Origin: Paramacrobiotus metropolitanus | Taxonomy: Eukaryota > Tardigrada > Eutardigrada > Parachela > Macrobiotidae | DNA: 64,000 nt | Direction of reading: 5' to 3' | Assembly: GCF_019649055.1 (NCBI RefSeq) | Contig: NW_026570281.1 | Location: forward strand, 62,001-126,000 | Part shown: piece after piece, positions 16,031 through 64,000 of the stretch | Layout: every line of letters begins with the position of its first letter | Position numbering within the stretch: the first letter of the stretch is position 1 | The notes under the pieces: generated by a model | What the model saw: only the letters and a program-made list of their open reading frames with translations | Told to the model about the DNA's origin: nothing | The model's database searches: none | Program-made: the position numbers and the translations under genes

Positions 16031-17264
16031 TTATCGACGCGCACAGTTGCTCTTCTGCGAAAGTTCCGCCGGGCACTGTACCGGCGCAAAATTAATGCTG
16101 GGATTGTCCGCTCCCTTGAACCAAACGAACCGCCAATAGCATCCCTCTCGAATGGCATCCGGAAGTCCATTGCACATGTCCCGCAACCAGACCCCTCCGT
16201 CACGGTTGCCCCAGTTACTAGCCGGAAGCCCCCACTGCCGTGTGCACCCATCGAAGATTCCGAATCCACTTCCGGGGATCTGTAGGTCAAAGTGGTTCTC
16301 CCCCAGATCAGCTCCAGTGTTGACCACCTGCACAATCATTGACTTCCCGCTGACTGGACCACTCGTGAACTCCAGTTTGTAACACCCGCAGCACCAACCC
16401 CGCTCGTCCGATCCCCGGATATTGGCCGCGGCGAATCCGTACGCTAGGTTGTCGTTGACCGCCCACGGGATGTTGTCATTACAGACAAAGGCGTCGCTCC
16501 CGTCGCAGCCGCTGCGGACGTTGAAGTCCCACAGCTGACTGAATCCGTCGTTGCGGCAAGTTTTAACCGGGTTACTGACGTCGGCTTTTCCCGACCACGC
16601 GCAGCTCGGTTTGCAGCAGTCCCAGTACCGCGTCGTCCCAGTACCGCGTCCCAGTACCGCGTCGTCTTCCCGCTTTGTGACGAGCCGGACGGCTGTCCAC
16701 CGCTAGTCTCCGGAATTTCGCGAATAACCCCACAGACTGTGGATGTGTCGCCGCTATTGATAGCGTTTGCCTTGCTGATGGATCCGCCCTTGAGCGTGCA
16801 GACGCCGCCGTTCCAGTTGGACCATGCAAAGTGCGTGCAGGCCGGGTTGCTGGCACAATGTCCGCCGCAGCGTTCGCCAGGCATCGCCGCCTGACCGAGA
16901 TCGTTGCCCGGGAAGTCGCAGCCCATCGCCCAGTTGCCTTGCCACTGGATGCCGCCGCTCGACTGACCACCTCCGCCGCTCTATCACGAATCACGCCGCA
17001 CACCGTGGAGGAGTCTCCGCTGTCCACGGCATCCTGTTTGCTAACCGAGCCGCCTTTCAGTGTGCACGTTCCGCCATTCCAGTTCGACCAGGCAAAATGC
17101 GTGCAGTTGGTATTGTCGGCGCAGTGATCACCGCACTGGTCGCCGGGCAACTGTGCTTGGCGCAGGTCATTTCCGGCAAAGTCACACCCCATCGCCCAGT
17201 TTCCATTCCAATCGATCGACAGCACCGGCTGTAGCAGCAAAATCATGCAAGTAGCCCTGACCAC
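16031..17264 (-). CDS. Secreted PAN-PAN-GH45 endoglucanase, frame broken twice
   Basis: Read on the minus strand: an end-of-signal-peptide segment (ILLLQPVLS; the first exon upstream of 17264 is not located, as no in-frame ATG gives a full signal peptide), two PAN/Apple domains of ~75 residues (WAMGCDF...[12 protein letters not shown]...TCTLKGG pattern), then a GH45 domain from 16633 to the stop at 16031-16033. GH45 enzymes hydrolyse internal beta-1,4-glucan bonds. The family signature [11 protein letters not shown] supplies one catalytic Asp, and [14 protein letters not shown] the other; the domain is ~200 residues with ~14 cysteines, typical of the fungal-type subfamily. PAN1, PAN2 and GH45 lie in three different frames. 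The PAN1/PAN2 slip is in a Gly/Ser linker (16957-16996). The PAN2/GH45 slip is explained by 29 extra bases of tandem repeat at 16621-16665, inside the signature. It may be a recent pseudogene or a misassembled functional gene. Confidence 0.85.
16621..16665. repeat. Triplicated 16/13/16-bp repeat at the GH45 active-site motif
   Basis: Three consecutive copies of CCCAGTACCGCGT(CGT) occupy 16621-16636, 16637-16649 and 16650-16665; the middle copy lacks CGT. One copy is enough to encode TTRYWD. The two extra copies add 29 nt, which changes frame by two bases, exactly the shift between PAN2 and GH45. Confidence 0.9.
16730..17210 (-). repeat. Inverted 481-bp identical block, left copy
   Basis: Reverse complement of 18347-18827. 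I compared the two segments piece by piece and found no difference over 481 positions. Sequence diverges at once on both sides (signal-peptide side at 17211, PAN2 tail at 16729). It covers both PAN domains. Confidence 0.93.
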
Positions 17265-18136: not shown

Positions 18137-19476
18137 ATGTACACCGCTAAATTCCAGGTAAGCGAAACTGTATGGCAAAAAATAGATATCGCTGAACGCT
18201 GCAATGATTAGTGCTTTATGTACAAAGGCCATTCCAAAGAGGCATAAGGACATCGATGCAATGCTGTGCTCTTATTGACGATTTTTCAGATTTCTTGCTT
18301 GGTTTTTGTAGTTTGTTTCCTGCTGCAACATGTACAGTCGATTGACTGGAATGGAAACTGGGCGATGGGGTGTGACTTTGCCGGAAATGACCTGCGCCAA
18401 GCACAGTTGCCCGGCGACCAGTGCGGTGATCACTGCGCCGACAATACCAACTGCACGCATTTTGCCTGGTCGAACTGGAATGGCGGAACGTGCACACTGA
18501 AAGGCGGCTCGGTTAGCAAACAGGATGCCGTGGACAGCGGAGACTCCTCCACGGTGTGCGGCGTGATTCGTGATAGAGCGGCGGAGGTGGTCAGTCGAGC
18601 GGCGGCATCCAGTGGCAAGGCAACTGGGCGATGGGCTGCGACTTCCCGGGCAACGATCTCGGTCAGGCGGCGATGCCTGGCGAACGCTGCGGCGGACATT
18701 GTGCCAGCAACCCGGCCTGCACGCACTTTGCATGGTCCAACTGGAACGGCGGCGTCTGCACGCTCAAGGGCGGATCCATCAGCAAGGCAAACGCTATCAA
18801 TAGCGGCGACACATCCACAGTCTGTGGAGTCATCCGCGAAAATCCGGAAAATAGTGGTGGACAGCCGTCCGGCTCAAACAGAGTGTTTGATGTGTTGGCA
18901 ACGCGCCATGCTGCGCACGAATCCGGGTCTTGTGAACTGCCATCCGCTTCTTATACTGTTCAGTGGCCAGTGAGGCTGGGCGATATTGGTTCTTTGCAGG
19001 ATCTAAAATATTCACCTGGAATGTGCGGACAAGTGCTGAACATTGACTGCAGGAGCGGAGCGCTGGATACCATCGTCAACAACGCCAATTTGGGCGGAGG
19101 CCTGGATCTATACGCTTCGACGTGGGATCGCGCAACCGACAGCAAGCCCCCTGGTGAAAGTAGATGCTCGGTCATTCTCTCCACTCGCAATGCTATGGAC
19201 GCGAATGGCCCACAGTGCTTCTATGCTCCCACATCAGAAAAGAACAACGCCTTTTTCAAACTGTTAGGCGTTTTCAACACTAACGGCCAGGTGGGGGTAA
19301 GCGCCAGTCTGGACGGACGACCCGGATCGTTCAACGGACTGCAGCCGTACTTCGCCTTCCATGGTGGTCCCATTGATTCTGGAGCGCAAGCGGTGTTTAG
19401 GTTTTCTGACGGCTCGACCTTCAGCACTTCTTTGCGAGACTGTATAGCACAAAGCGGAGTCCAAATGTGGAGTTGA
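18137..19476 (+). CDS. Secreted PAN-PAN protein with an unnamed C-terminal Cys domain, one frame slip
   Basis: Exon 1 is proposed at 18137-18157 (MYTAKFQ, donor GTAAGC at 18158). The intron ends TTTTTCAG at 18289, and phase 0 joining gives a convincing signal peptide ending HVQS before IDWNGNW. Two PAN/Apple domains follow (about 18346-18560 and 18606-18840), probably glycan- or protein-binding modules. PAN1 is in frame 2 and PAN2 in frame 1; the slip of one missing base lies in the Gly/Ser linker at 18561-18600 and is identical in the inverted neighbour. After a short linker, ~200 residues carry paired cysteines (PGMCGQVLNIDC, ESRCSVIL, GPQCFYAP, LRDC) and a GGGLDLYASTW segment. It faintly recalls double-psi beta-barrel proteins related to expansins, which I cannot confirm. 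The stop is TGA at 19474-19476. Confidence 0.75.
18347..18827 (+). repeat. Inverted 481-bp identical block, right copy
   Basis: Partner of 16730-17210. Both copies span the two PAN modules with the same linker frame slip. Flanking exons and C-terminal domains are unrelated between the two genes. Confidence 0.93.
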
Positions 19477-52398: not shown

Positions 52399-52795
52399 TT
52401 AACCAGCCACGTTGCCGGCGGCACAGATACCACAGACGGAGACGGGTGGGCAGACGTTTGCATTGATGGGCAGCTGCACACCAGCACCGTTGCCCAGATT
52501 GACCGGGATCAGGCTGATGAGGCCGCCGCCTCCACTGTTGCCACCGCTAAGCACCTGCGTGTTCTGGTTGTTGTTGTTCTGACACTGCGCCATACCTGCA
52601 AAACATGCAAAGGTCATACTGAGTTGACAAAGATTAGCAGCCGTTGCACTTACCGCACTGGGATTTCTGTTCCGCGGTGCAACCGGCACTGCCGCCTGTC
52701 AGCTGGGGTATCGGCAGCGCCGGCAGTTGGCGAGCGAAGCGAAGGGCGTTGGCGGCCGAGCACGCAACGAGGAGAATCAACACGGCTGTCTGCAT
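52399..52795 (-). CDS. Small secreted six-Cys Gly/Asn-rich protein, copy A
   Basis: Exons 52795-52654 and 52595-52399 (phase 1 intron of 58 nt) give 112 residues. Signal peptide MQTAVLILLVACSAANA, then LRFAR followed by QL (an R-x-x-R convertase-type site), an extra PALPIP insert unique to this copy, and the shared mature part: GGSAGCTAEQKSQCG, AQCQNNNNQNTQV, SGGNSGGGGLIS, NGAGVQLPINANVCPPVSVC, short C-tail ending NVAG. There are six cysteines outside the signal peptide. No named family is recognised. A Streptomyces-chaplin-like ring to VQxPxNxxVC is superficial. It is probably an extracellular structural or surface protein; function unknown. Confidence 0.85.
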
Positions 52796-55132
52796 TGTGA
52801 GGGAGTACTTTTGTTTTCGAGAAATGGAATAGAAAACAGAGTTGCAAATTAATAGTTGTGATTTCAACCATTTATTCCGTCCTTAAATACAGATGGCAGC
52901 CCAATTAAGTCGGTTGGCAGGGTGGCCAATTCCGTTCGGATTCTTCCGAGAACAGGATTTTTGCGTGACTTGCTGTGGTTGTCGTAATATGACCAGTTGT
53001 CGCGCGCTGTCTCGCTTGAAGGCCTGATGGCTGCTTTTGGCGTTCGTGTATCCCACAGACAGATGATGCCCGTCGCGTGCACCTAACGCGACTCGCACGC
53101 GGAATTCTATACCTTTTTCCGCTGGCGACAGAAAATACCTTCATAGCAATACTGGAGAGAAGTTTGTTTTTCGGAAAACGCTTTCGGTGCTGAAATAGTG
53201 TCGAGAGCTTTGCTGGCTTGCCTGAATAACATTATTCCAATTTTGTACACGGTCGGTGGAGAATTAAAATTAAATAGCGAAGTTCACATGGTGATCTAAT
53301 AACCACAGTAATAAAAGCACCGTTGACGTTCTCACGTCACGTATTGCAAGCGGCAACATTGGGCCAAGTAGCGTTTTGACAACAGTTGCCGGTCTTGACA
53401 GATCCAAGGCGCATCGGTGGATATAAGCGTAGATATTCTTGCTAATAAGAATTTTTGTTACAACGTTTTTAACACTAGCGTAATTTTTACTGCCTCTGAG
53501 ACAAATTTTTTGCGCCTCTGTATACAAATCATTTTGCTGCAGAATGTCGTAACCAAGAAAAGAAATGTTTGAGAGTACGCGAAAGTGAAACTTTTCGTGC
53601 ATGCACACGAATTTGGTACCTTGTACCGGGCCATGTACAGAGTACATCTCATCTACCCTAATTCGTATGAATGAATTGTTTCAGATTACCCTGTACTCCC
53701 GCGAAAACTACTGCTTTCTTCATACGATACTATAAAAGTTTGCGAAATCTCGGAGATAAACATTTTAAACGAACGAACTTTGGGAACGTCCGGTGCAATA
53801 TAGTTGGAAATGCCCGGTATTGTAGCGAACTTCGGGTTTTATTTTGAAAACTTTAGAAACTTTCATTTTTGAAATTTCGATTTCTCGTTCGAAAGATGAA
53901 TTCCTCTAGTAACCGTGAACTGGAGTCGATTGTGATGCAAATCGATTCTGCCAGCGCGACTCTTCGAAAATGCAACGAAATAAAATCTTGTATAAGTGAT
54001 TGTGCGAGTGTTTAAGATAGTGCAGTGCTAACTGCGTGGATAGTACGAGTATATTGAAACGAGTATATTGTATTGTATATTATAGTACTGTATATTATTG
54101 TATTGTATATTATATTATATTATATTATATTATATTATATTATATTATATTATATTATATTATATTATATTATATTATATTATATTATATTATATTATAT
54201 TATATTATATTATATTATATTATATTATATTATATTATATTATATTATATTATATTATATTATATTATATTATATTATATTATATTATATTATATTATAT
54301 TATATTATATTATATTATATTATATTATATTATATTATATTATATTATATTATATTATATTATATTATATTATATTATATTATATTATATTATATTATAT
54401 TATATTATATTATATTATATTATATTATATTATATTATATTATATTATATTATATTATATTATATATACAGTATATTGTATAGTACGAATATATTGTATT
54501 GTGAAACACGGTCTGCGTGAACTGCGTGATTTTGTATTTCCCTTTATTCACTTTACGGTAATTCGCAATTATGTATGTAATGTAATGAAGTTTATTGTCC
54601 TTGCAACGAAGCGACTGCCCCCTCTAAGCTTCAGACAGCGGAGAACAAACCAGAATGTTAAAATAACATCAAAATGCGATACCACGAAAACATGAAAGCC
54701 AGCGGAAACAAGTATAAACCAGAAAAAACATCAACATATGCAAAAACAAACATCAGCACATGAAAAGCACTTAAAACTGCATGTTGTCGGTACGGTTGCG
54801 ATAAGTCGCGTTTATTGTGGAAAAAGGGCGGGGAATTACCTCGTAATTTAGCTACCATATGGCCAATTATATGATATGGGTGCCAATTATTGATATCCGT
54901 CAGGTCATTCCGTATAAATTTCAGAGTTAATTTATTCTGACGCGAGAACAACGTTAACTTTACCGACAGGGTGGTGTACGAACATCTGTATATAAAATGG
55001 TAGTGGTACTATTCTGGTGCTGGAAAGCCGGGAATATCGATTTAATTTGTTGACAGCCTGATACAGTACTGTATAAGTTCACTGCTCCTAGAGCAAGCTG
55101 CATCGACAAAAACGAACGTGTTAAAATACATT
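52796..55132. other. Spacer between copies A and B
   Basis: It contains the pentanucleotide microsatellite at 54106-54465 and otherwise no recognised gene. A minus-strand TATTTAAG at 52883-52890 could be the copy A TATA element (weak). Confidence 0.45.
54106..54465. repeat. (TATAT)n pentanucleotide microsatellite
   Basis: About 360 bp of an uninterrupted 5-bp repeat, roughly 72 units, flanked by imperfect TATTG/TATAG variants on both sides. ORFs through it are artefacts of the repeat. Confidence 0.98.
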
Positions 55133-55138
55133 TTTATT
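55133..55138 (-). terminator. Polyadenylation signal AATAAA, copy B
   Basis: TTTATT on the plus strand, 138-143 nt downstream of the copy B stop codon on the minus strand. Confidence 0.5.
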
Positions 55139-55275
55139 GAGCAGCGTCTTGAAAACAAGACATTATAACCACCTTTTTACGGTCGGTCATAATTATTATG
55201 AAACATAACACGTAAAAAAACAATTTTGTTCCATCACAACAGTCAAACAGATTCCGGGTAATAAGCCGTGATCTT

Positions 55276-55770
55276 TTAACCGAGAACATTAGCAGCGGCG
55301 CAGATACCGCAGACGGACACCGGTGGACAGACGTTAGCGTTAACGGGAACCTGCACGCCGGCTCCGTTCAACAGATTGAGGGGGACACCGCTGATGAGAC
55401 CGCCGCCACCGGTGTTACCACCGCTGATCACCTGGGTGTTCTGGTTGTTGTTATTCTGACACTGAGCCATACCTGCAAAATAAAATTCACATTTGTGAAA
55501 TTCAGTTGCTCGAGAGTCAGTGCGTTAGTAACAATACAGACAGAACAATATCATGAAAGTTATAAATTTCGTAAATGATGCAGTATGTATGCATGCAGAC
55601 ATAACAATCTAATTGTCTGTTTGGTAAGAAACTTAAGGTCATCAGCGCTTACCACAAAGCGATTTCTGTTCCGCGGTACATCCGGCAGAGCCGCCGGTGA
55701 GCTGGCGAGCGAAGCGCAGGGCATTGGCGCTGGCGCAGGCCACAAGGAGGATCAATACGGCAGTCTTCAT
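55276..55770 (-). CDS. Small secreted six-Cys Gly/Asn-rich protein, copy B
   Basis: Exons 55770-55653 and 55472-55276 (phase 1, intron 180 nt) give 104 residues. Signal peptide MKTAVLILLVACASANA, R-F-A-R then QL, and the mature region with the family pattern; second exon of 197 nt as in all copies. It is closest to copy A (same CGICAA tail, NNNNQNTQV) and on the same strand, so A and B are a tandem pair. Six cysteines are conserved in position. The mature protein is nearly devoid of charged residues, which suggests low solubility or self-assembly (inference). Confidence 0.87.
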
Positions 55771-55859
55771 TGTTAAGGGAAGGTTTTGACGTTTCGAGAA
55801 AGAGCTAAGAAATTCAGAGAGTTGATGATTGCGTTGTGGTACGGTTTGAGAAAAGCGTT

Positions 55860-55869
55860 CTTTTATATT
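55860..55869 (-). promoter_or_regulatory. TATA box of copy B
   Basis: Minus-strand AATATAAAAG about 90 nt upstream of the start codon, at a spacing similar to the TATA boxes of copies C and D. Confidence 0.6.
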
Positions 55870-58800
55870 GTCAAGCGCAATCTAGTGAATATATTAATAA
55901 AAGGAATATTCCGCTCAAGAAACGCGCATGCAATTTACTACAAAGCAATAAAACGTGAGCGATGGTTTCTTGGCATTGTTGTTTAACTGTGCGCTTGGCT
56001 GCTGGTAGGTCTGCATTACAGTAACGTGCGCCCGGAAGCGACGACGGAAGGCACCAACGTTTTGTTGTCCATTAATTGGCGCCATTGCGAACCTGTACTC
56101 TATACAGAAGTGCAATTCATTGTCAGTAGTCGGCTTCGGTCGACAGTCTTCCTATAACGTATGCCATAAACTGTCGATTCACTAACAGTAAGGAATACCG
56201 GCAAATAAAATAAAAAAATGCTATCAATACGAGTACAGTACACGATTTAACATATGCAGTAAGTGCAACTGAGCGATTCTGAGATATTTTGTATTGTATT
56301 GTATTTTGTATTATGTTGTTTTTTAGACGCTGTCAACTATACTCAAAGTAAATAAATGAGTATATTTTGTATTTAGCTACACACTTCTCAAACTTAAAAT
56401 TTGCGAATATCTGGGATTTTGATTTAGCGTAATAATCGAAGGACGTAAGTAAGAGAAGTTAATAAGACTGCAGATAGCAAACAACAGAAGCTACAATCTC
56501 TGAAATCGAAAGCTTTGAAACGGACAAAAAGAAAACGTTTGCCGTAACCCTCACTATCTTTTACTGTAGGCGTAAAACGGGACTTAACATCAGGGAAACC
56601 CATGACACATTTTTAATTTTGACTTTTATCAGCTTTCTATATACATACTGTAGTTTGCTTTTTTAGCGTATACTGTTTAGAGTGCGCAGGTCAGTTCTAT
56701 TGTTCTCGTACAGTTTTCTGGAGAGGCCGAATTGAAAAAGAGCTGATTGTTGAATCGCCATAAATGCCGCTGCCTTCGGCGTTCAATTTACGCCAAAATA
56801 TCCACGCGACTTAAAACAAAACTATAGGTAAGAATGCGCTGGGTCACGCTTACTGTTAGCATGTACAACAATGTCGGCAACGTGACCTAAGGGTATTTTC
56901 CACTTGCAAAAACTGGCTCATTGTTCTGCTAAGAACTGCAGCGTGCATCGCACGTGTATGTGCACTGCGGCTTTTCAGCAACAGAGACATGTTTATTCTT
57001 TAGTCTGTATCTACAGGAATAGCCGATCTTAGCAGAATGTAATGGGGATGACCTTTTGTTTCCCGACTGTGTTGTCGCAGAACCAGCTGGGGAGCGTACA
57101 AACTTCTAATCTGCACAATACTCCAGTGCAGGAGTTACCTTGAGTAATTTAGGGGAAAATATAAAACAATATCAGAGGAAGCTGTTGCAACAGTTCACAA
57201 AAACCAAAGCGATAAAACAGTGCTTAGTTGTACTATTTTTTCATCTTTCTAATTGAGTTTTCATTTTTTCAGGTTTAATTTTATTCATAATCGTTTGTGC
57301 ATAACACAGACACAAGTATTTTGGTCAGACTTTTAATGGATCTTCAACCTTCGCTGTGCTACTGTATATCGTGTCGCTGGGAAGGCTCGTCGCATCTTGA
57401 AGCAGAGCAGCTCAGAAGGACTGAGACGGTTACTAAATGTCGCTATACATATGCAATTTTTACTGTTTCGTGAGAGTTGATTTTCTGAAACCATAATTGC
57501 TGGCCGTACTGTATGCACGTTAAACCTAAACACAAAATCGTGCTGCCTACTACTCATCTTGGTTGTAGTAACGGAAAATGTTGCGCTGCACTGCAGACAA
57601 CTGCTGGCGATCGCAAAAACGAAGACTCTTTACAAGTCCCAAAGTGCGGGCATAAGGAAATTAGGCAAGAATTCTTTTATTTGTTAGCGTTATTGTACAG
57701 TTGAAGCCAGTGACCTTCAATAGAAGCCTACTTTATAGTAACACGGAACATCCATTCAAGTCAACGAACCTCAAGGTCAAACAACTCGGTTAAATGCTGT
57801 ATTTGTTTACAGCGTCAGCACGTGTGTAGATTTGTAAACACCAAAGTGCGCTTGCAGGTTGCGGTCCGAAGCAAGTTTGGTTGCTCGTGAAAATGTCGGG
57901 AATGGCGATCTAATACATACGGCGTCATTGTGCATAATAACGACCCTTTGGTTTGTTGCACTCTTTCTGTACCGCAACCACACGGTGCTGACGGTCGCTT
58001 TGTAGTAGTAACAGCGCAGCAGAATGCTATCGTATGCGCTGCTGCAATGTCTTTTCCTCTTGCCGTTCTGATTCCTATTCCAGTGTTCGCCGCACTACTC
58101 TAGTAGTCGCAGTGAGGTCTGAATGGTGATACCGGAAGTGTTTGTCAGGCAAAAGAAAAAAGAAGCGAAAAACATAAAGGACCCGCGCCGTACGTGCGCA
58201 TAACCTCTTATAAGTTTTAAGTTCAAAAGCTCTATTTCGAAAACTTTTAACATTCGCAGTCTAGCTTTTGTTTGTAAAATATATCAACTTAATAAACTGA
58301 AATAAAATATATATTTTAAAAATTCTTTTCCGTTTAGCCTTTTCACGATTTTAGAGTTCAATGTATGGCGCAAATAAAGCTGATTGGCTGATCCAGTTCT
58401 TGATTACATCGACGCTTCGTTACAAGTGAAGATGTCCAACCACTCTTCTCACTGCACGTATTTGATACAGTAAGTTACAAGTAGCTTTTTGCTAAGCCGG
58501 TTCGGAATACTGCATAGTTTCATTTTATACAATTCATATCTGTGCGTGACTGCGTATATTGTGCGTTTTATACTGAGCGCCTTTCTTCATTTTACTTTTC
58601 TTCTGAACTCATGGTTTACAATGTACATAATTTGGTTGCCGAATACCCAACTGAAAAGCGTACGTTTAGGAAATAATATTTAACCTATAACCGCAACAAA
58701 CTTCGTTTTAAAAGCGGCTTTCGTAAAGTCTAACAAGGCAGAAGTCATAAGCATATGGAAAACACCAACAATCTGTAGCATAACTTTGCTGCATAATTAT

Positions 58801-59085
58801 TGCTCAGTGTTTTATGTCGAGCGGCACGCAGACGGTGTATCACGCTCCGCTTTCTCGTGGTTTACAATTAACATTCACCAAAGTTTGCCCGCAAGCCACA
58901 ACACTGGCATAACCAACAATAATTCCACTGAATGTGTGCGCCAAACGCAAAAACAACTTCCATAACGCACGCTTTATATGGCACGTTGTGTCGTTAGTGG
59001 TCGTAAACATCTTGTTTGGGTAGATTCCCGCTTGACATACTAACAAAATGGCAGACGACAAATTAAGCTGCGCCGGACGTATCTG
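55870..59085. other. Spacer between divergent copies B and C
   Basis: 3.2 kb without a recognisable gene or named repeat. Copies B and C point away from each other across it. Confidence 0.45.
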
Positions 59086-59095
59086 TATATAAAAA
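59086..59095 (+). promoter_or_regulatory. TATA box of copy C
   Basis: TATATAAAAA, 115 nt upstream of the ATG, in a stretch shared in layout with copy D. Confidence 0.65.
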
Positions 59096-59200
59096 GAACT
59101 GCCGACATGTACAGTAGCCCTTACCAAACAAGTCTCAAAGTTTCTAAGCTTAAGCCCTCTGCAAAACATTACGTTATCTCTCCTCCGTCTCGTCGCAACC

Positions 59201-59581
59201 ATGAAGTGCATCCTGGTGACCCTCCTCTTGGTGGCCTGCGTCAGCGCCAATGTCCTCCGTGAACGCCGCCAACTGACCGGTGGCAGCGCCAGCTGCACGG
59301 CCGCCCAGAAAGCTCAGTGCGGTAAGTGTCGTCGCGTCACATCGGCATTAGCTCCTTCTTAGCCTGCATTGTCTTTTACTGCAGGTATGGCGGAGTGCCA
59401 GAACAACGGCAACCAGAACACCCAGGTGATCACTGGCGGTAACCAAGGTGGCTCTCCCCTGATCAGCCTGATCCCCGTCAACGCCCTCAACGGTGCCGGC
59501 GTCCAAGTGCCCATCAACGCCAATCTGTGTCCACCGATTTCCGTCTGCAATGCCTGCTTGGCTGCCAACGTCCTCGGTTAA
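59201..59581 (+). CDS. Small secreted six-Cys Gly/Asn-rich protein, copy C
   Basis: Exons 59201-59321 and 59385-59581 (phase 1, intron 63 nt) give 105 residues. Signal peptide MKCILVTLLLVACVSA, then NVLRERR before QL: RERR is a full furin-type site and the new N-terminal Gln could cyclise. Mature part: TGGSASCTAAQKAQCG, AECQNNGNQNTQV, GGNQGGSPLIS, NGAGVQVPINANLCPPISVC, CLAANVLG. It pairs with copy D (same signal peptide, RERRQL, CNAC). An AATAAA lies at 59763-59768. Confidence 0.88.
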
Positions 59582-59762
59582 AGAAACACGCGGATTTATC
59601 CTTAATTTTGCTCAAATTTTGCAGTGCACGTGTACAAAGGTCATCAGTAGCTGCCTACAGATGTAGGTTTTCATAATATTTATGAACGCTACTGTGAACA
59701 TCGTCATGACTTGCGACTGTGTCGAAAGTTGTTGGTTTGTTGAATTTAAGATAACTGTCAGA

Positions 59763-59768
59763 AATAAA
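59763..59768 (+). terminator. Polyadenylation signal AATAAA, copy C
   Basis: 182 nt after the stop codon, followed by a T-rich tract. Confidence 0.55.
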
Positions 59769-59834
59769 GCATTTTTTGGTCTGTACACTTTTTTTCGATA
59801 ATTATAAGTCATACTGAGGCACATCAAATTATCG

Positions 59835-60232
59835 AAACAATATGCCGCACAACGTCCCGATGGCTGCACGACCTTTGCCTGGCAGAGGAGATGTGTCTAG
59901 CTTGGGATGTCACGTGTGTGGATACCGTTACGCCTTCCCACATTAAATCTACGGCGGCTAACGCAGGTGCAGCCGCGGTGGAAGCGGAAGAGAAGAAGTC
60001 GCGGCTTTATCTGTACTTAAGCGGCAGGTATATTTTTGCTCCGATAGCCTTCGGAACAAGCCCTTGGGAAGCGGCTGCTATCGCCATTATCAAAGAATTG
60101 GGTAAACGACTGGAACAGCAAACAGGCGAAAAGCGTTCCCATGAATTTTTACGTCAAAGATTGTCGCTGGAGATACAACGGGGGAATGCGGTCTCAATTT
60201 TTGGGTACAATGGAAGGAGCGGAAAAGTTTAA
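59835..60232 (+). pseudogene. Retrotransposon ORF fragment (reverse-transcriptase-associated C-terminal region)
   Basis: The translation contains WDVTCVDT, an Ala-rich AGAAAVEAEE segment, an F/Y-P-x-A-F/V-x-T-S-PWE-like box and RLSLEIQRGNAVSIFG. I know this combination from the ends of non-LTR-type retrotransposon proteins in many animals. Upstream, RPDGCTTF lies in a different frame from WDVTCV, with a TAG between, so the copy is frame-shifted as well as 5' truncated. No reverse-transcriptase catalytic domain, poly(A) tail or target-site duplication is seen. The exact clade cannot be assigned. Confidence 0.7.
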
Positions 60233-60461
60233 CGAAGTTTTTATGTTGTAAAAACTGTGATGTTTTTAATTAATGCATAATACGTTGTACCACAGGTGAA
60301 TAATGAGAATATGCCGCAACATGGACAGGAGAAAAATACACAGTAATGTGTCTCGGATATTAAGATATATTGTAACAGTTATACTTATATTATACTAGTT
60401 TAATACCATGTCGCGCCTTATAAGAAGCAATGGCAGAAATACAGGGATTAGAGCTGCCATT
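60233..60461. other. Short spacer, nothing recognised
   Basis: AT-rich; it presumably includes the 3' UTR of the rhodanese gene on the minus strand. Confidence 0.4.
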
Positions 60462-60926
60462 TTAACTCCCGTTTGGATTAATTTTGGCATTCCATTCCAG
60501 TATACCGCCCGCGTAATTGCGCACATTGGTGTAACCCAGTTCTCTCGCCATCGCTGCGGCCAGTGTGCTTCGCCGACCCGAGCGACAACTGACAATAATC
60601 TCGCTATCCTGACCCTGAACTGCGAGGCCGTGTAATGCCTGCAGTTCCGATGGCGACAGCCGCAGTGTATCTTTGAACTGCCCCAGAGGAATGTTGACAG
60701 CCGAGGGAATTGCTCCGTCCTTGGCGAGTTCCGCTGGCTCCCGCACATCGATGAGGTTCATCGCGCCCATGTCGGACAGACGCTTCATTTCTTCGAATGT
60801 GACATCGGTCCCGGTGTTGCTAAGAATGCCGTCTGTGGACATTGCAATTGACACAACCAGGAAAAACACTATCACGATCTGTGTGCTTGGAGAAGCACCA
60901 CACGACTGCGAGCCGTGCGTTAACAT
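60462..60926 (-). CDS. Single rhodanese-domain protein with N-terminal hydrophobic anchor
   Basis: Intronless ORF of 154 residues from ATG 60926 to TAA 60462-60464. Residues ~16-29 are hydrophobic (QIVIVFFLVVSIAM), so it may be membrane-anchored, mitochondrial or secreted. A rhodanese fold follows: DVTFEEMKRL, LIDVREPAEL, IPSAVNIPLGQF, and the active-site loop SCRSGRRS with Cys ~114, then AGGILEW. CRSGRR fits sulfurtransferases that move sulfane sulfur via a persulfide. It resembles single-domain thiosulfate sulfurtransferase-like proteins (TSTD1, Hsp67B2-like). Start at Met29 would remove the anchor and is possible. The gene sits alone between the retro-fragment and copy D, pointing left. 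Confidence 0.85.
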   Translation of the reverse strand: MLTHGSQSCGASPSTQIVIVFFLVVSIAMSTDGILSNTGTDVTFEEMKRLSDMGAMNLIDVREPAELAKDGAIPSAVNIPLGQFKDTLRLSPSELQALHGLAVQGQDSEIIVSCRSGRRSTLAAAMARELGYTNVRNYAGGILEWNAKINPNGS

Positions 60927-61458
60927 TTTTGCTGTTTGGTAAAAGCACCTGGTTCTTGCTATTTTGAACCGGTTTCGACGTACAGTACATGCACATTTAC
61001 GGTTAGTGCTCTATCATAAGTACAGCATGCAGTATGCACGGTAAGCCTGTTATTAATAATTATGTTGCAGGTTTTGTTTCCGGCACATGGGAGGCTAAAC
61101 TGGCTAACCCGTACAGTACTGCTTGCTTATACAATTCATCGTAATTACTGATTGACATCACGGCGATCACATGACTGTACGTAGTACTCTGCACATGTTT
61201 CCAAACCGAACGCTGCCGTCCACCTCCGCGCCGCACCTTTAATTAACGCTGCGGCGCTTATGCAACGTTAATTTACTGATAAGACTATACAGATACGTAA
61301 AGTCTTATAAGACGTTAGCGCCGTTAAACACCTTTGGGGACAGCATTACATATAAAGTAGCAGAAAATCTGTTAATTTTTATTCTCGTTTAAACACCGCT
61401 GTAGACACTAGACAGTACCAATAAATGTAATAATAATTATTATTATTGTATGAATTTT
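60927..61458. other. Upstream of the rhodanese gene
   Basis: No gene is recognised. A minus-strand AATAAA (TTTATT, about 61378-61383) could serve the uncertain ORF to the right. Confidence 0.35.
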
Positions 61459-61863
61459 CTATTCGACAACATTACAATCAACGCTGTCGAAGCACGGCAC
61501 GCCAGTAGGTGACACGGAGAGAAGTCCCGCAACAAGTGTCGTTCTCTCCTCATTCCTCAGCATTTGGTTTCCGCTCTCAGAAGCCACAATGCAATCAGCC
61601 ATCGTTCTAATCTCGCGACCACACCGACGGGTTAAACGAGAATACAGATATTGAATTAAATACTGTAACTTAGTAATAATATTGGAAACATTTCCAGTAT
61701 AACCTTGCAACACATGGAATATTTTTCTGGAGACGAAGCACGTGCTTGCGACACGTGGAATTTCCACGCATTGCCGCCTGCGGGCACAAAGGACGCTGAC
61801 ACGGGTTAACCGCAGATCCCCACGGCAAAAAAAGCTGTCGACACTGATCATCCGCGCATTCAT
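61459..61863 (-). CDS. Hypothetical 134-residue ORF, uncertain
   Basis: ATG at 61863 to TAG at 61459. Features for: a complete ORF, a minus-strand AATAAA about 80 nt past the stop, and regularly spaced cysteines (CVEIPRVASTC, RRCGREIRTMADC, VPCFDSVDC) of the kind found in small helical secreted proteins. Features against: no clear signal peptide in this frame, and the overlapping frames are also open. An upstream exon may replace the present N-terminus. No family recognised. Confidence 0.28.
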   Translation of the reverse strand: MNARMISVDSFFCRGDLRLTRVSVLCARRRQCVEIPRVASTCFVSRKIFHVLQGYTGNVSNIITKLQYLIQYLYSRLTRRCGREIRTMADCIVASESGNQMLRNEERTTLVAGLLSVSPTGVPCFDSVDCNVVE

Positions 61864-62799
61864 CGCAAGGACATCCCTTCAGCCACCGCAGGCTGCGCAG
61901 CTGCACTGACTGGTGAACTGCACGACCTGCGTCGATGTTTCGAACCTATATTGCTACTGATAACGATCCGCAAGCGGACTTGTATTAAAAAATCTTTTAA
62001 TACGAAAAACAATATATAGTTAATCCTGACGAACAAGGCCGAATGCACGACATTGTATAATTTGCATGTGTTGGTGTAGCCCTGGCCCCTTATAACGTTT
62101 GACTGCATGGAGCGAGTAAGTTTAATTCTATAATAAAGCTGTCACAATGCACAAACAACAGCCGCGTGATGCACAAACAACAGCCACCTCTCTACAAATA
62201 GTACGTAACACATTTGCCTGTATGATTAACGTTGCTCTACACAGGCTGGAATACTTGTACAATGCGTGCAGTACATGTAGCCTTTTCTCTACTCAGAAGA
62301 GTATGGAATTCGGCTGAATTTCTGGCTGTTTCATATTTGCTTGTCTCTGTGGCAGGCTTGCAGCCAGTACACTGTACAGGTAAAAGACTGCGTAAAAAAA
62401 GTGTGCATACCCGGAGAAATTTTTGTGATGAAAAACTTGCGAAAAATGTCCTCGAAGCGTTACTAAGCGAATACTTGCATAAAAGAAACCGCTACCACTG
62501 TGGAACAAACAAAATGAGTAATGGGTTGTTTTGAACCAGTGTCGCTGCGGTGTCGAGAGCTACCTCCCTCCGGCTGTGCATACCACGGACCCAAACCACA
62601 AGTGCATCGCAGTGAACAATGCTGAGAAAAACTTGTTACTCACGATCAACGTAAAATGTGTGATGCAGTACACAAGCCTTGACTGTTAATCATCGTACTC
62701 TGTAGAACAATTATGCGCCGGAAGTTGCCAATCGGCATGCGCGCTTTGTACTAATTAGCCGCGACCGCAGTGTGGCTTTTTTGCCAACACAGAACTTGC
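61864..62799. other. Spacer upstream of copy D
   Basis: A 90-codon ORF at 62262-62534 (+) has a hydrophobic N-terminal third and a possible donor (CAG/GTAAAAG) at ~62380, but I cannot build a supported gene from it. No other feature is seen. Confidence 0.3.
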
Positions 62800-62807
62800 T
62801 ATATAAA
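62800..62807 (+). promoter_or_regulatory. TATA box of copy D
   Basis: TATATAAA, 114 nt upstream of the ATG. The spacing is almost identical to copy C. Confidence 0.65.
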
Positions 62808-62913
62808 TAAACCACTTGCGGTTTTTCGAAGCAAACAATCCTGCAACTTTCGACAAACTACAAACTTTCCTGTTTGCTATCAAGTCATTAAGTATCACAT
62901 ATCAGCTGCAGCC

Positions 62914-63375
62914 ATGAAGTGCATCTTGGTGACCCTTCTCTTGGTGGCATGTGTCAGCGCCAACGTTATTCGTGAACGCAGACAACTTTTGGGCGGTAAC
63001 GCTAGCTGCACCGCGGCTCAACAAGCGCAGTGTGGTGAGTGACCTTTTTGGATTCACGTGTTCAAAGGCCGCTGTTCACAAAATTAAAAGACCCTTTTAA
63101 TGCAAGCTATAAATTTGTATTTGTAAAGAGTGATTGTTGCATTGAAAAAATTTAATTATCTCCGGTCTGTAATTGCAGGGTCGGCACAGTGTCAGAATAA
63201 CGGCAACACCAACACTCAGGTGCTGAGCGGCGGTAACAGCGGTGGTGGTGGCCTGATCAGCGGCGTGCCCGTCAACCTGCTGAACGGTGCTGGCGTCCAG
63301 CTGCCCATCAACGCCAACGTCTGCCCGCCCGTATCCGTATGCAATGCATGCTTGGGTGCCAACGTTCTCGGTTAA
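62914..63375 (+). CDS. Small secreted six-Cys Gly/Asn-rich protein, copy D
   Basis: Exons 62914-63034 and 63179-63375 (phase 1, intron 144 nt) give 105 residues. The signal peptide is identical to copy C at 16 of 16 residues, then NVIRERR and QLLGGNASC. The second exon begins GSAQCQNN, whereas the other three begin GMA(Q/E)CQNN. The rest follows the family: NTQVLSGGNSGGGGLIS, GAGVQLPINANVCPPVSVC, CLGANVLG. An AATAAA lies at 63502-63507. Confidence 0.88.
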
Positions 63376-63609: not shown

Positions 63610-64000
63610 CAATCTCCAGGCCACATTAAAGCAGTAATTAAACACAGTTTATTAATTTTTCACGCATTGCGGTAGTGATAATTAAACTCTTAATTATGCT
63701 GGGAATTAAACATCATGATTAATTCAATTAAAATTATGGCAATTTTGAATTAAGCTTGAGCATAATTAAAATTGGTCAATTCTAATTATACTTAAGCTTA
63801 ATTATAAGTCAAATTAAAAATAATATTTTCTGATAGATCAAAAGAAAATTGAATTTTAATTATGATGAGCAAAATTAAAATTGGGCAATTTTAATTATGC
63901 TCCAGTTTAATTAAAATTGTTGAATTTTGATTATGCTGATCATAATTAAAACTCAGCGATTTTCAATTATGATTAGCTTAATCAAAATTATAAGCAAAAT
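63610..64000. repeat. AT-rich array of degenerate palindromic units, runs off the window
   Basis: AATTAAAATTG and its complement CAATTTTAATT recur in facing orientation every ~25-40 bp, joined by ATGCT/AGCAT-type spacers. The clearest unit is AATTAAAATTGGGCAATTTTAATT near 63872. Copies are diverged. It could be an old satellite or an AT-rich boundary; the array continues beyond base 64000. Confidence 0.75.

What the first reader, a model, noticed from the sequence alone, without database searches (positions are those of the whole stretch)
52399..63375. Four-gene cluster of an unnamed secreted six-cysteine protein family
Four genes (A and B minus, C and D plus) share a two-exon layout, a phase 1 intron after a Cys codon, and a second exon of exactly 197 nt. 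They also share six Cys positions and the motif GAGVQ(L/V)P(I/V)NAN(V/L)CPP(V/I)SVC. First exons differ more, and introns vary from 58 to 180 nt. Strong TATA boxes at ~90-115 nt suggest high, regulated expression. The mature proteins are rich in G, N, V and almost uncharged, as in self-assembling surface or coat proteins. I recognise no named family.
Basis: partly seen in the sequence, partly recalled or inferred. Interest (0 to 1): 0.88.

Follow-up and report, generated by a model that had tools for sequence, protein, structure and literature searches.

The report
Tardigrade secreted six-cysteine multigene family
The four genes are real and are the edge of a family of at least 27 genes for small, mostly uncharged, cysteine-rich secreted proteins in what appears to be a water bear, matching no catalogued family searched and most likely building an extracellular coat, while the same genome also carries genuine copies of a bacterial coat protein.

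Summary
All four genes have two exons, a phase-1 GT-AG intron after the second mature Cys, a 197-nt second exon and six mature cysteines. They are not a four-gene family: the host genome, which fits the tardigrade Paramacrobiotus metropolitanus, holds at least 27 copies, 18 within about 60 kb. Purifying selection is strong (median dN/dS 0.156). The Cys framework holds in 26 of 26 models. Pfam, NCBIfam, PHROGs and PDB give no credible match, and contig scans confirm no relative.

Best explanation: an extracellular, disulphide-tied, self-assembling coat. Assembly, tissue and expression are untested.

The motif resembles that of Streptomyces chaplins, but profile tests against decoys do not establish homology. 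That search revealed three genuine intron-split chaplin genes in the same animal genome (Pfam E 4e-15 to 4e-18), an apparent bacterial acquisition. Five paper searches with chaplin among their terms showed me no report. This by-product may matter more than the finding.

The parts
52654..52795 (-). gene A exon 1 (leader, RFAR site, Cys1-Cys2)
52399..52595 (-). gene A exon 2, 197 nt (Cys3-Cys6, stop)
55653..55770 (-). gene B exon 1 (leader, RFAR site, Cys1-Cys2)
55276..55472 (-). gene B exon 2, 197 nt
59201..59321 (+). gene C exon 1 (leader, RERR site, Cys1-Cys2)
59385..59581 (+). gene C exon 2, 197 nt
62914..63034 (+). gene D exon 1 (leader, RERR site, Cys1-Cys2)
63179..63375 (+). gene D exon 2, 197 nt

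Best explanation
This is a tardigrade gene family of at least 27 members encoding small secreted structural proteins. Shown by sequence: a hydrophobic N-terminal leader that reads as a signal peptide; an R-x-x-R site of furin type; in 23 of 24 models a Gln directly after it; a variable linker; then a six-Cys unit of two Cys on exon 1 and, on exon 2, Cys3, a long mostly uncharged stretch rich in Q/N/G in most members, a hydrophobic P-V motif and a tight C-x5-C-x2-C end. Inferred: the protein is secreted, cut at R-x-x-R (exposing Gln, probably pyroglutamate), tied by disulphides, and packs with its many paralogues through the uncharged N/Q/G/V segment into an insoluble extracellular layer such as the egg envelope, cuticle or a gland secretion. 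Many similar copies with TATA promoters would then serve high dosage in a burst of synthesis. This works like chorion, cuticle, hydrophobin or chaplin coats, without shown membership of any of them.
For: Copies and cluster: the same 25 exon-2 places found by three family queries, plus two divergent members. Purifying selection. Cys framework kept in 26 of 26 models, including two members found by other criteria than Cys spacing. R-x-x-R in 24 of 24 complete models and Gln next in 23; net charge 0 or -1; 0-3 charged residues; N+Q+G 37-43% of the mature chain in 21 of 24, and 21-24% in the three members with a long P-rich linker. TATA box in 20 of 24. No confident fold of exon 2 alone, which fits, but does not prove, a protein ordered only on assembly.
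Against: No transcript, tissue, proteomic or assembly evidence was available. No signal-peptide or cleavage predictor was run. Low pLDDT on a shallow paralogue alignment is uninformative. One divergent member (C61:165728) is net positive rather than uncharged. Nothing shows that the proteins are abundant or insoluble.
Confidence: 0.5

Rival explanations
1. Secreted signalling or hormone-like peptides: a leader, a furin-type site, N-terminal Gln able to become pyroglutamate, and a disulphide core acting on receptors.
For: Conserved R-x-x-R|Q at the pro-region end in 23 of 24 models and a conserved six-Cys frame.
Against: At least 27 copies; few charged or aromatic residues; a long low-complexity N/Q/G stretch; linkers that vary from a few residues to a long P-rich stretch.
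Confidence: 0.12
2. Secreted defence (antimicrobial) peptides expanded by gene duplication.
For: Small secreted Cys-rich proteins in a tandem cluster, with one pseudogene-like copy; one divergent member, C61:165728, carries one K and three R with no D or E.
Against: Net charge 0 or -1 in 24 of 24 complete models; median dN/dS 0.156 with no computable pair at or above 1, so no sign of diversifying selection over exon 2 as a whole.
Confidence: 0.08
3. Reproductive or accessory-gland secretions (seminal or sperm-coat proteins) of this species.
For: P. metropolitanus has separate sexes and clustered sex-biased loci (PMC11191345: abstract, first parts of Methods and Results, and passages seen); secreted multicopy cluster.
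Confidence: 0.15
4. Diverged derivatives of the horizontally acquired chaplins of the same genome.
For: Short motif resemblance (LNGAGVQVPVN..NVC against LSGNLVQVPVHVPVNVC); hhalign P-value 0.0094 and only 4 of 200 column shuffles reach the real score; mean chaplin-HMM score of members 0.37 bits against -0.89 for shuffles; one member (gene B) has a best-domain score of 5.3 bits with its leader included. In both families a phase-1 G|GTAAG-like intron in a Gly codon, a similar leader and an R-rich run.
Against: hhalign probability is 4.3%, over 11 columns; the reversed profile scores 15.9 against 16.5; the best of 26 mature members, 3.1 bits, is below the 99th percentile of shuffles (4.78; max 9.5) and below the best reversed member (4.3). 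Six Cys against two; introns fall at different places of the protein.
Confidence: 0.1

Closest known systems
Streptomyces chaplins (Pfam PF03777, ChpA-C)
   Same: Small secreted proteins, hydrophobic domain with a VQVPV..NVC-like motif, several paralogues per genome (eight in S. coelicolor, PMC3079736 Introduction).
   Different: Most chaplin domains have two Cys; this family has six in a fixed frame. Pfam's chaplin model matches none of 21 scanned members, and profile comparison does not clearly beat decoys.
Fungal hydrophobins (compared from recalled knowledge)
   Same: Secreted, small, disulphide-rich, coat surfaces.
   Different: Hydrophobins have eight Cys with two adjacent pairs (recalled); here six and no adjacent pair. 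No hydrophobin Pfam match in 21 members.
Insect chorion and cuticle gene clusters (recalled, not searched by name)
   Same: Clustered multicopy genes, leader-bearing first exon, G-rich secreted products.
   Different: No Pfam match of any such family in 21 members; Cys frame not compared.
Tardigrade heat-soluble proteins (CAHS, SAHS)
   Same: Tardigrade multigene proteins.
   Different: A CAHS query finds 19 places, none on contig C61; the present proteins are nearly uncharged and Cys-rich. SAHS was not tested.

Membership tests
Chaplin (PF03777) | Match to the ChpA-C profile | tested here: not met
   0 of 21 members scanned at E up to 10; the search of the genome with PF03777 returned no place of this family among its 6; chaplin HMM built here gives 26 mature members at most 3.1 bits, decoys up to 9.5
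Chaplin (PF03777) | Two conserved Cys in the chaplin domain (all S. coelicolor chaplins but ChpE, PMC3079736) | tested here: not met
   six Cys in a fixed frame, 26 of 26
Chaplin (PF03777) | Forms amyloid fibrils and coats a surface | not testable with these tools
   needs protein; chaplin property from PMC3079736 (abstract, Introduction and one Results section seen)
Hydrophobin | Eight Cys with two adjacent CC pairs (recalled) | tested here: not met
   six Cys, none adjacent, 26 of 26
Antimicrobial peptide | Cationic mature peptide (recalled as typical, not strictly defining) | tested here: not met
   net 0 or -1 in 24 of 24 complete models; the divergent member C61:165728 is an exception with one K, three R and no acid
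Secreted structural multigene family (chorion/cuticle kind) | Leader exon plus body exon, many clustered copies | tested here: met
   24 two-exon models; 18 of 27 copies within about 60 kb of one contig
Secreted structural multigene family (chorion/cuticle kind) | Product found in an extracellular layer | not tested
   no proteome or in situ data at hand

The most novel reading that the evidence does not exclude
A tardigrade has built a functional-amyloid extracellular coat from two sources: true chaplins acquired from actinobacteria (three intron-split genes on C167), and a large home-grown six-Cys family that is either a far-diverged chaplin derivative or has converged on the same surface-coating motif. 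It would use them to waterproof eggs or cuticle in an animal known for surviving drying.
Probability: 0.12. Interest if true: 0.88.

Novelty: new variant of a known kind. Interest (0 to 1): 0.56.

Why it matters
A large, strongly conserved secreted family with no credible match in Pfam, NCBIfam, PHROGs or PDB is a concrete candidate for a tardigrade extracellular material. It can be tested with existing RNA-seq and with egg and cuticle proteomics. The chaplin genes found on the way would, if confirmed, be a bacterial functional amyloid bearing the marks of an animal secreted gene (an intron, a leader, an R-rich site), which makes the question of what an animal does with a chaplin testable.

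Tried and rejected
Not established: membership in, or descent from, chaplins. Tested by Pfam, hhalign, and a chaplin HMM with residue-shuffled, reversed and column-shuffled decoys; details, including the weakly suggestive numbers, are under the fourth rival.

No bacterial or viral source of the six-Cys family found: scans of genome contigs and viral contigs gave 27 and 124 pattern matches, none confirmed by tblastn.

Rejected: contamination as the source of the chaplin genes. GC of the four 3-kb loci is 0.46-0.485 against 0.66-0.75 in ten of the 80 fetched actinobacterial loci; the three C167 genes have GT-AG introns. The neighbouring gene's family has 46 matches at E up to 0.001 in this genome, on many contigs including the largest.

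Led nowhere: structure of exon 2 (mean pLDDT 39.7), so no fold search was made; PDB sequence search; paper searches for an animal chaplin or a tardigrade coat or eggshell family. A short repeat shared by C167 and C41 has only a 17-nt match in the window, too weak to use.

Two weaker chaplin-like places, on C318 and C32 (below cut-off), were looked at and left unclassified. C41:792532 is over the cut-off on its own exon but I did not complete a gene model for it. One search read minus-strand loci in the wrong orientation and was superseded.
Full report
WHAT IS THERE. The mature part has six Cys; the four precursors carry one or two further Cys in the leader.

THE GENOME. The window is G000:C61:62001-126000 of a 169,799,020-base, 533-contig genome. 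A CAHS query (a tardigrade protein; query and that fact recalled) finds 19 places, best E 4.8e-65. Size, and a contig C1 of 4,484,719 bases, are near those printed for Paramacrobiotus sp. TYO (170,483,395 bases; longest scaffold 4,484,941; 684 scaffolds; GC 43.46%; PMC8277472, passages only), apparently the strain called P. metropolitanus TYO in PMC11191345.

THE FAMILY. Three queries (genes A and C exon 2, and the divergent C61:156244 member) each return the same 25 exon-2 places: 16 on C61:114-175 kb, two on C8, two on C360, and one each on C19, C68, C97, C128 and C427. Twenty-four gave complete two-exon models; one (C61:174428) has an in-frame TAG and was left as it is. A DNA pattern for CQNNxN (83 places, against 36 for the control pattern) pointed to a further divergent member at C61:165728-165955. 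An exon-1 query (23 places) pointed to another at C61:132894. This makes 27, of which 18 lie on C61:114-175 kb. The search tool calls its counts lower bounds, and the stretch between about 139 and 154 kb was searched but not read.

CONSERVATION. Exon-2 dN/dS was computed over 20 of the 27 (left out: three of different length, the divergent C61:156244, the copy with the stop, and the two most divergent members): 190 pairs, 4 saturated, median 0.156, none of the rest at or above 1. The frame C-x7-C-x4/5-C-x26-53-C-x5-C-x2-C fits 26 of 26 models; its ranges were set after seeing the two divergent members, which had been found by other criteria. R-x-x-R ends the pro-region in 24 of 24 complete models and Gln follows in 23; the exception (C61:134771) has Thr. 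By eye the two divergent members also have R-x-x-R|Q. The 24 complete models are nearly uncharged; the divergent C61:165728 is not, with one K, three R and no acid. A tree of 26 proteins has 5 of 23 inner branches well supported. It groups genes A and B with three other RFAR members (90/90, below the tool's mark), groups the C8/C128 members with long P-rich linkers (99/91), and leaves the other 17, including C and D, largely unresolved; the three longest branches are unsure.

WHAT IT IS NOT. Pfam gives no credible match (3 proteins; 21 members, best E 0.01 for an RxLR effector model); NCBIfam best E 0.099 (2 proteins); PHROGs best E 0.045 (1 protein); PDB best E 1.6 (1 query). No relatives were confirmed in bacterial/archaeal genome contigs or viral contigs.

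THE CHAPLIN QUESTION. The motif reminded me of Streptomyces chaplins (recalled), so I tested it. Searching this genome, the Pfam chaplin profile returns six places, none in the six-Cys family; four are over its cut-off, three on C167 and one on C41. In the tool's 14 control genomes it rings in one, E. coli, below cut-off. Spliced, the three C167 genes score E 4.4e-18, 4.4e-17 and 4e-15. They read as a leader, an R-rich run, then SPGVLSG|NLMQVPVHVPVNICGNT and the like, with a GT-AG intron of 115-123 nt inside the chaplin domain. GC is 0.46-0.485 against 0.66-0.75 in ten of those 80. The genes lie in an array with copies of a gene whose family has 46 matches across this genome. dN/dS of the three pairs is 0.43-0.59, weaker constraint than in the six-Cys family. 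I take these as true chaplins acquired from bacteria. Of nine paper searches, five had chaplin among their terms (in 35, 54 and 78 a paper could be listed without it) and showed me no report of a chaplin in an animal. I saw listings and starts of abstracts there, not the full texts of the papers listed.

ARE THE TWO RELATED? Not established. hhalign gives P 0.0094 but probability 4.3% over 11 columns; 4 of 200 column shuffles score as high; the reversed profile scores 15.9 against 16.5; the chaplin HMM gives the 26 mature members a mean of 0.37 and a maximum of 3.1 bits, 1022 scored shuffles a mean of -0.89, a 99th percentile of 4.78 and a maximum of 9.5, and reversed members a maximum of 4.3. 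With its leader included, gene B reaches 5.3 bits on its best domain. A short similarity of leaders (best E 0.001 in a tiny database) is the sort of thing expected of two signal peptides. The resemblance stays a lead.

HOW IT MOST LIKELY WORKS. Secretion, R-x-x-R cleavage and disulphide closure follow from the sequence by general knowledge; assembly into an extracellular layer is inferred from composition, copy number, TATA promoters (20 of 24) and the likeness to known coats. The structure prediction (exon 2 only, mean pLDDT 39.7) neither supports nor refutes this.

VERDICT. A real, uncatalogued, expanded family; function inferred; of moderate to good interest, raised by the chaplins in the same genome.

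Noticed in passing
L041, L042, L043 (G000:C167:107791-121500): Three intron-split genuine chaplin genes (PF03777, E 4e-15 to 4e-18) in the animal genome, in an array with another multicopy gene: an apparent acquisition from actinobacteria.
   Followed up: partly
L044 (G000:C41:792532-792606): A fourth chaplin-like exon over the Pfam cut-off (23.7 bits) with a similar leader-like reading frame upstream.
   Followed up: partly
L032 (G000:C61:174428-174625): A family copy resembling the long-linker type with an in-frame TAG, at the far end of the cluster; pseudogene-like.
   Followed up: no
L153 (G000:C61:165728-165955) and L022 (G000:C61:132894): Two strongly diverged members that keep the Cys frame and the R-x-x-R site while much else has changed, pointing to the features most likely essential.
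   Followed up: partly
window 16682-17241 and 18316-18875: Inverted duplication, 560-nt arms, 97% complementary, in a region coding for PAN-like proteins (Pfam E 0.0005, below the curated cut-off).
   Followed up: partly
window 54076-54481: A (TATAT)n microsatellite of 81 units between genes A and B.
   Followed up: no
window 60462-60926: A rhodanese-domain gene (Pfam E 4.6e-21) with a leader-like N-terminal stretch on the minus strand, sitting inside the cluster between C and D.
   Followed up: no
window 63726-63989: AT-rich imperfect repeats of period 36 and 71 just downstream of gene D.
   Followed up: no
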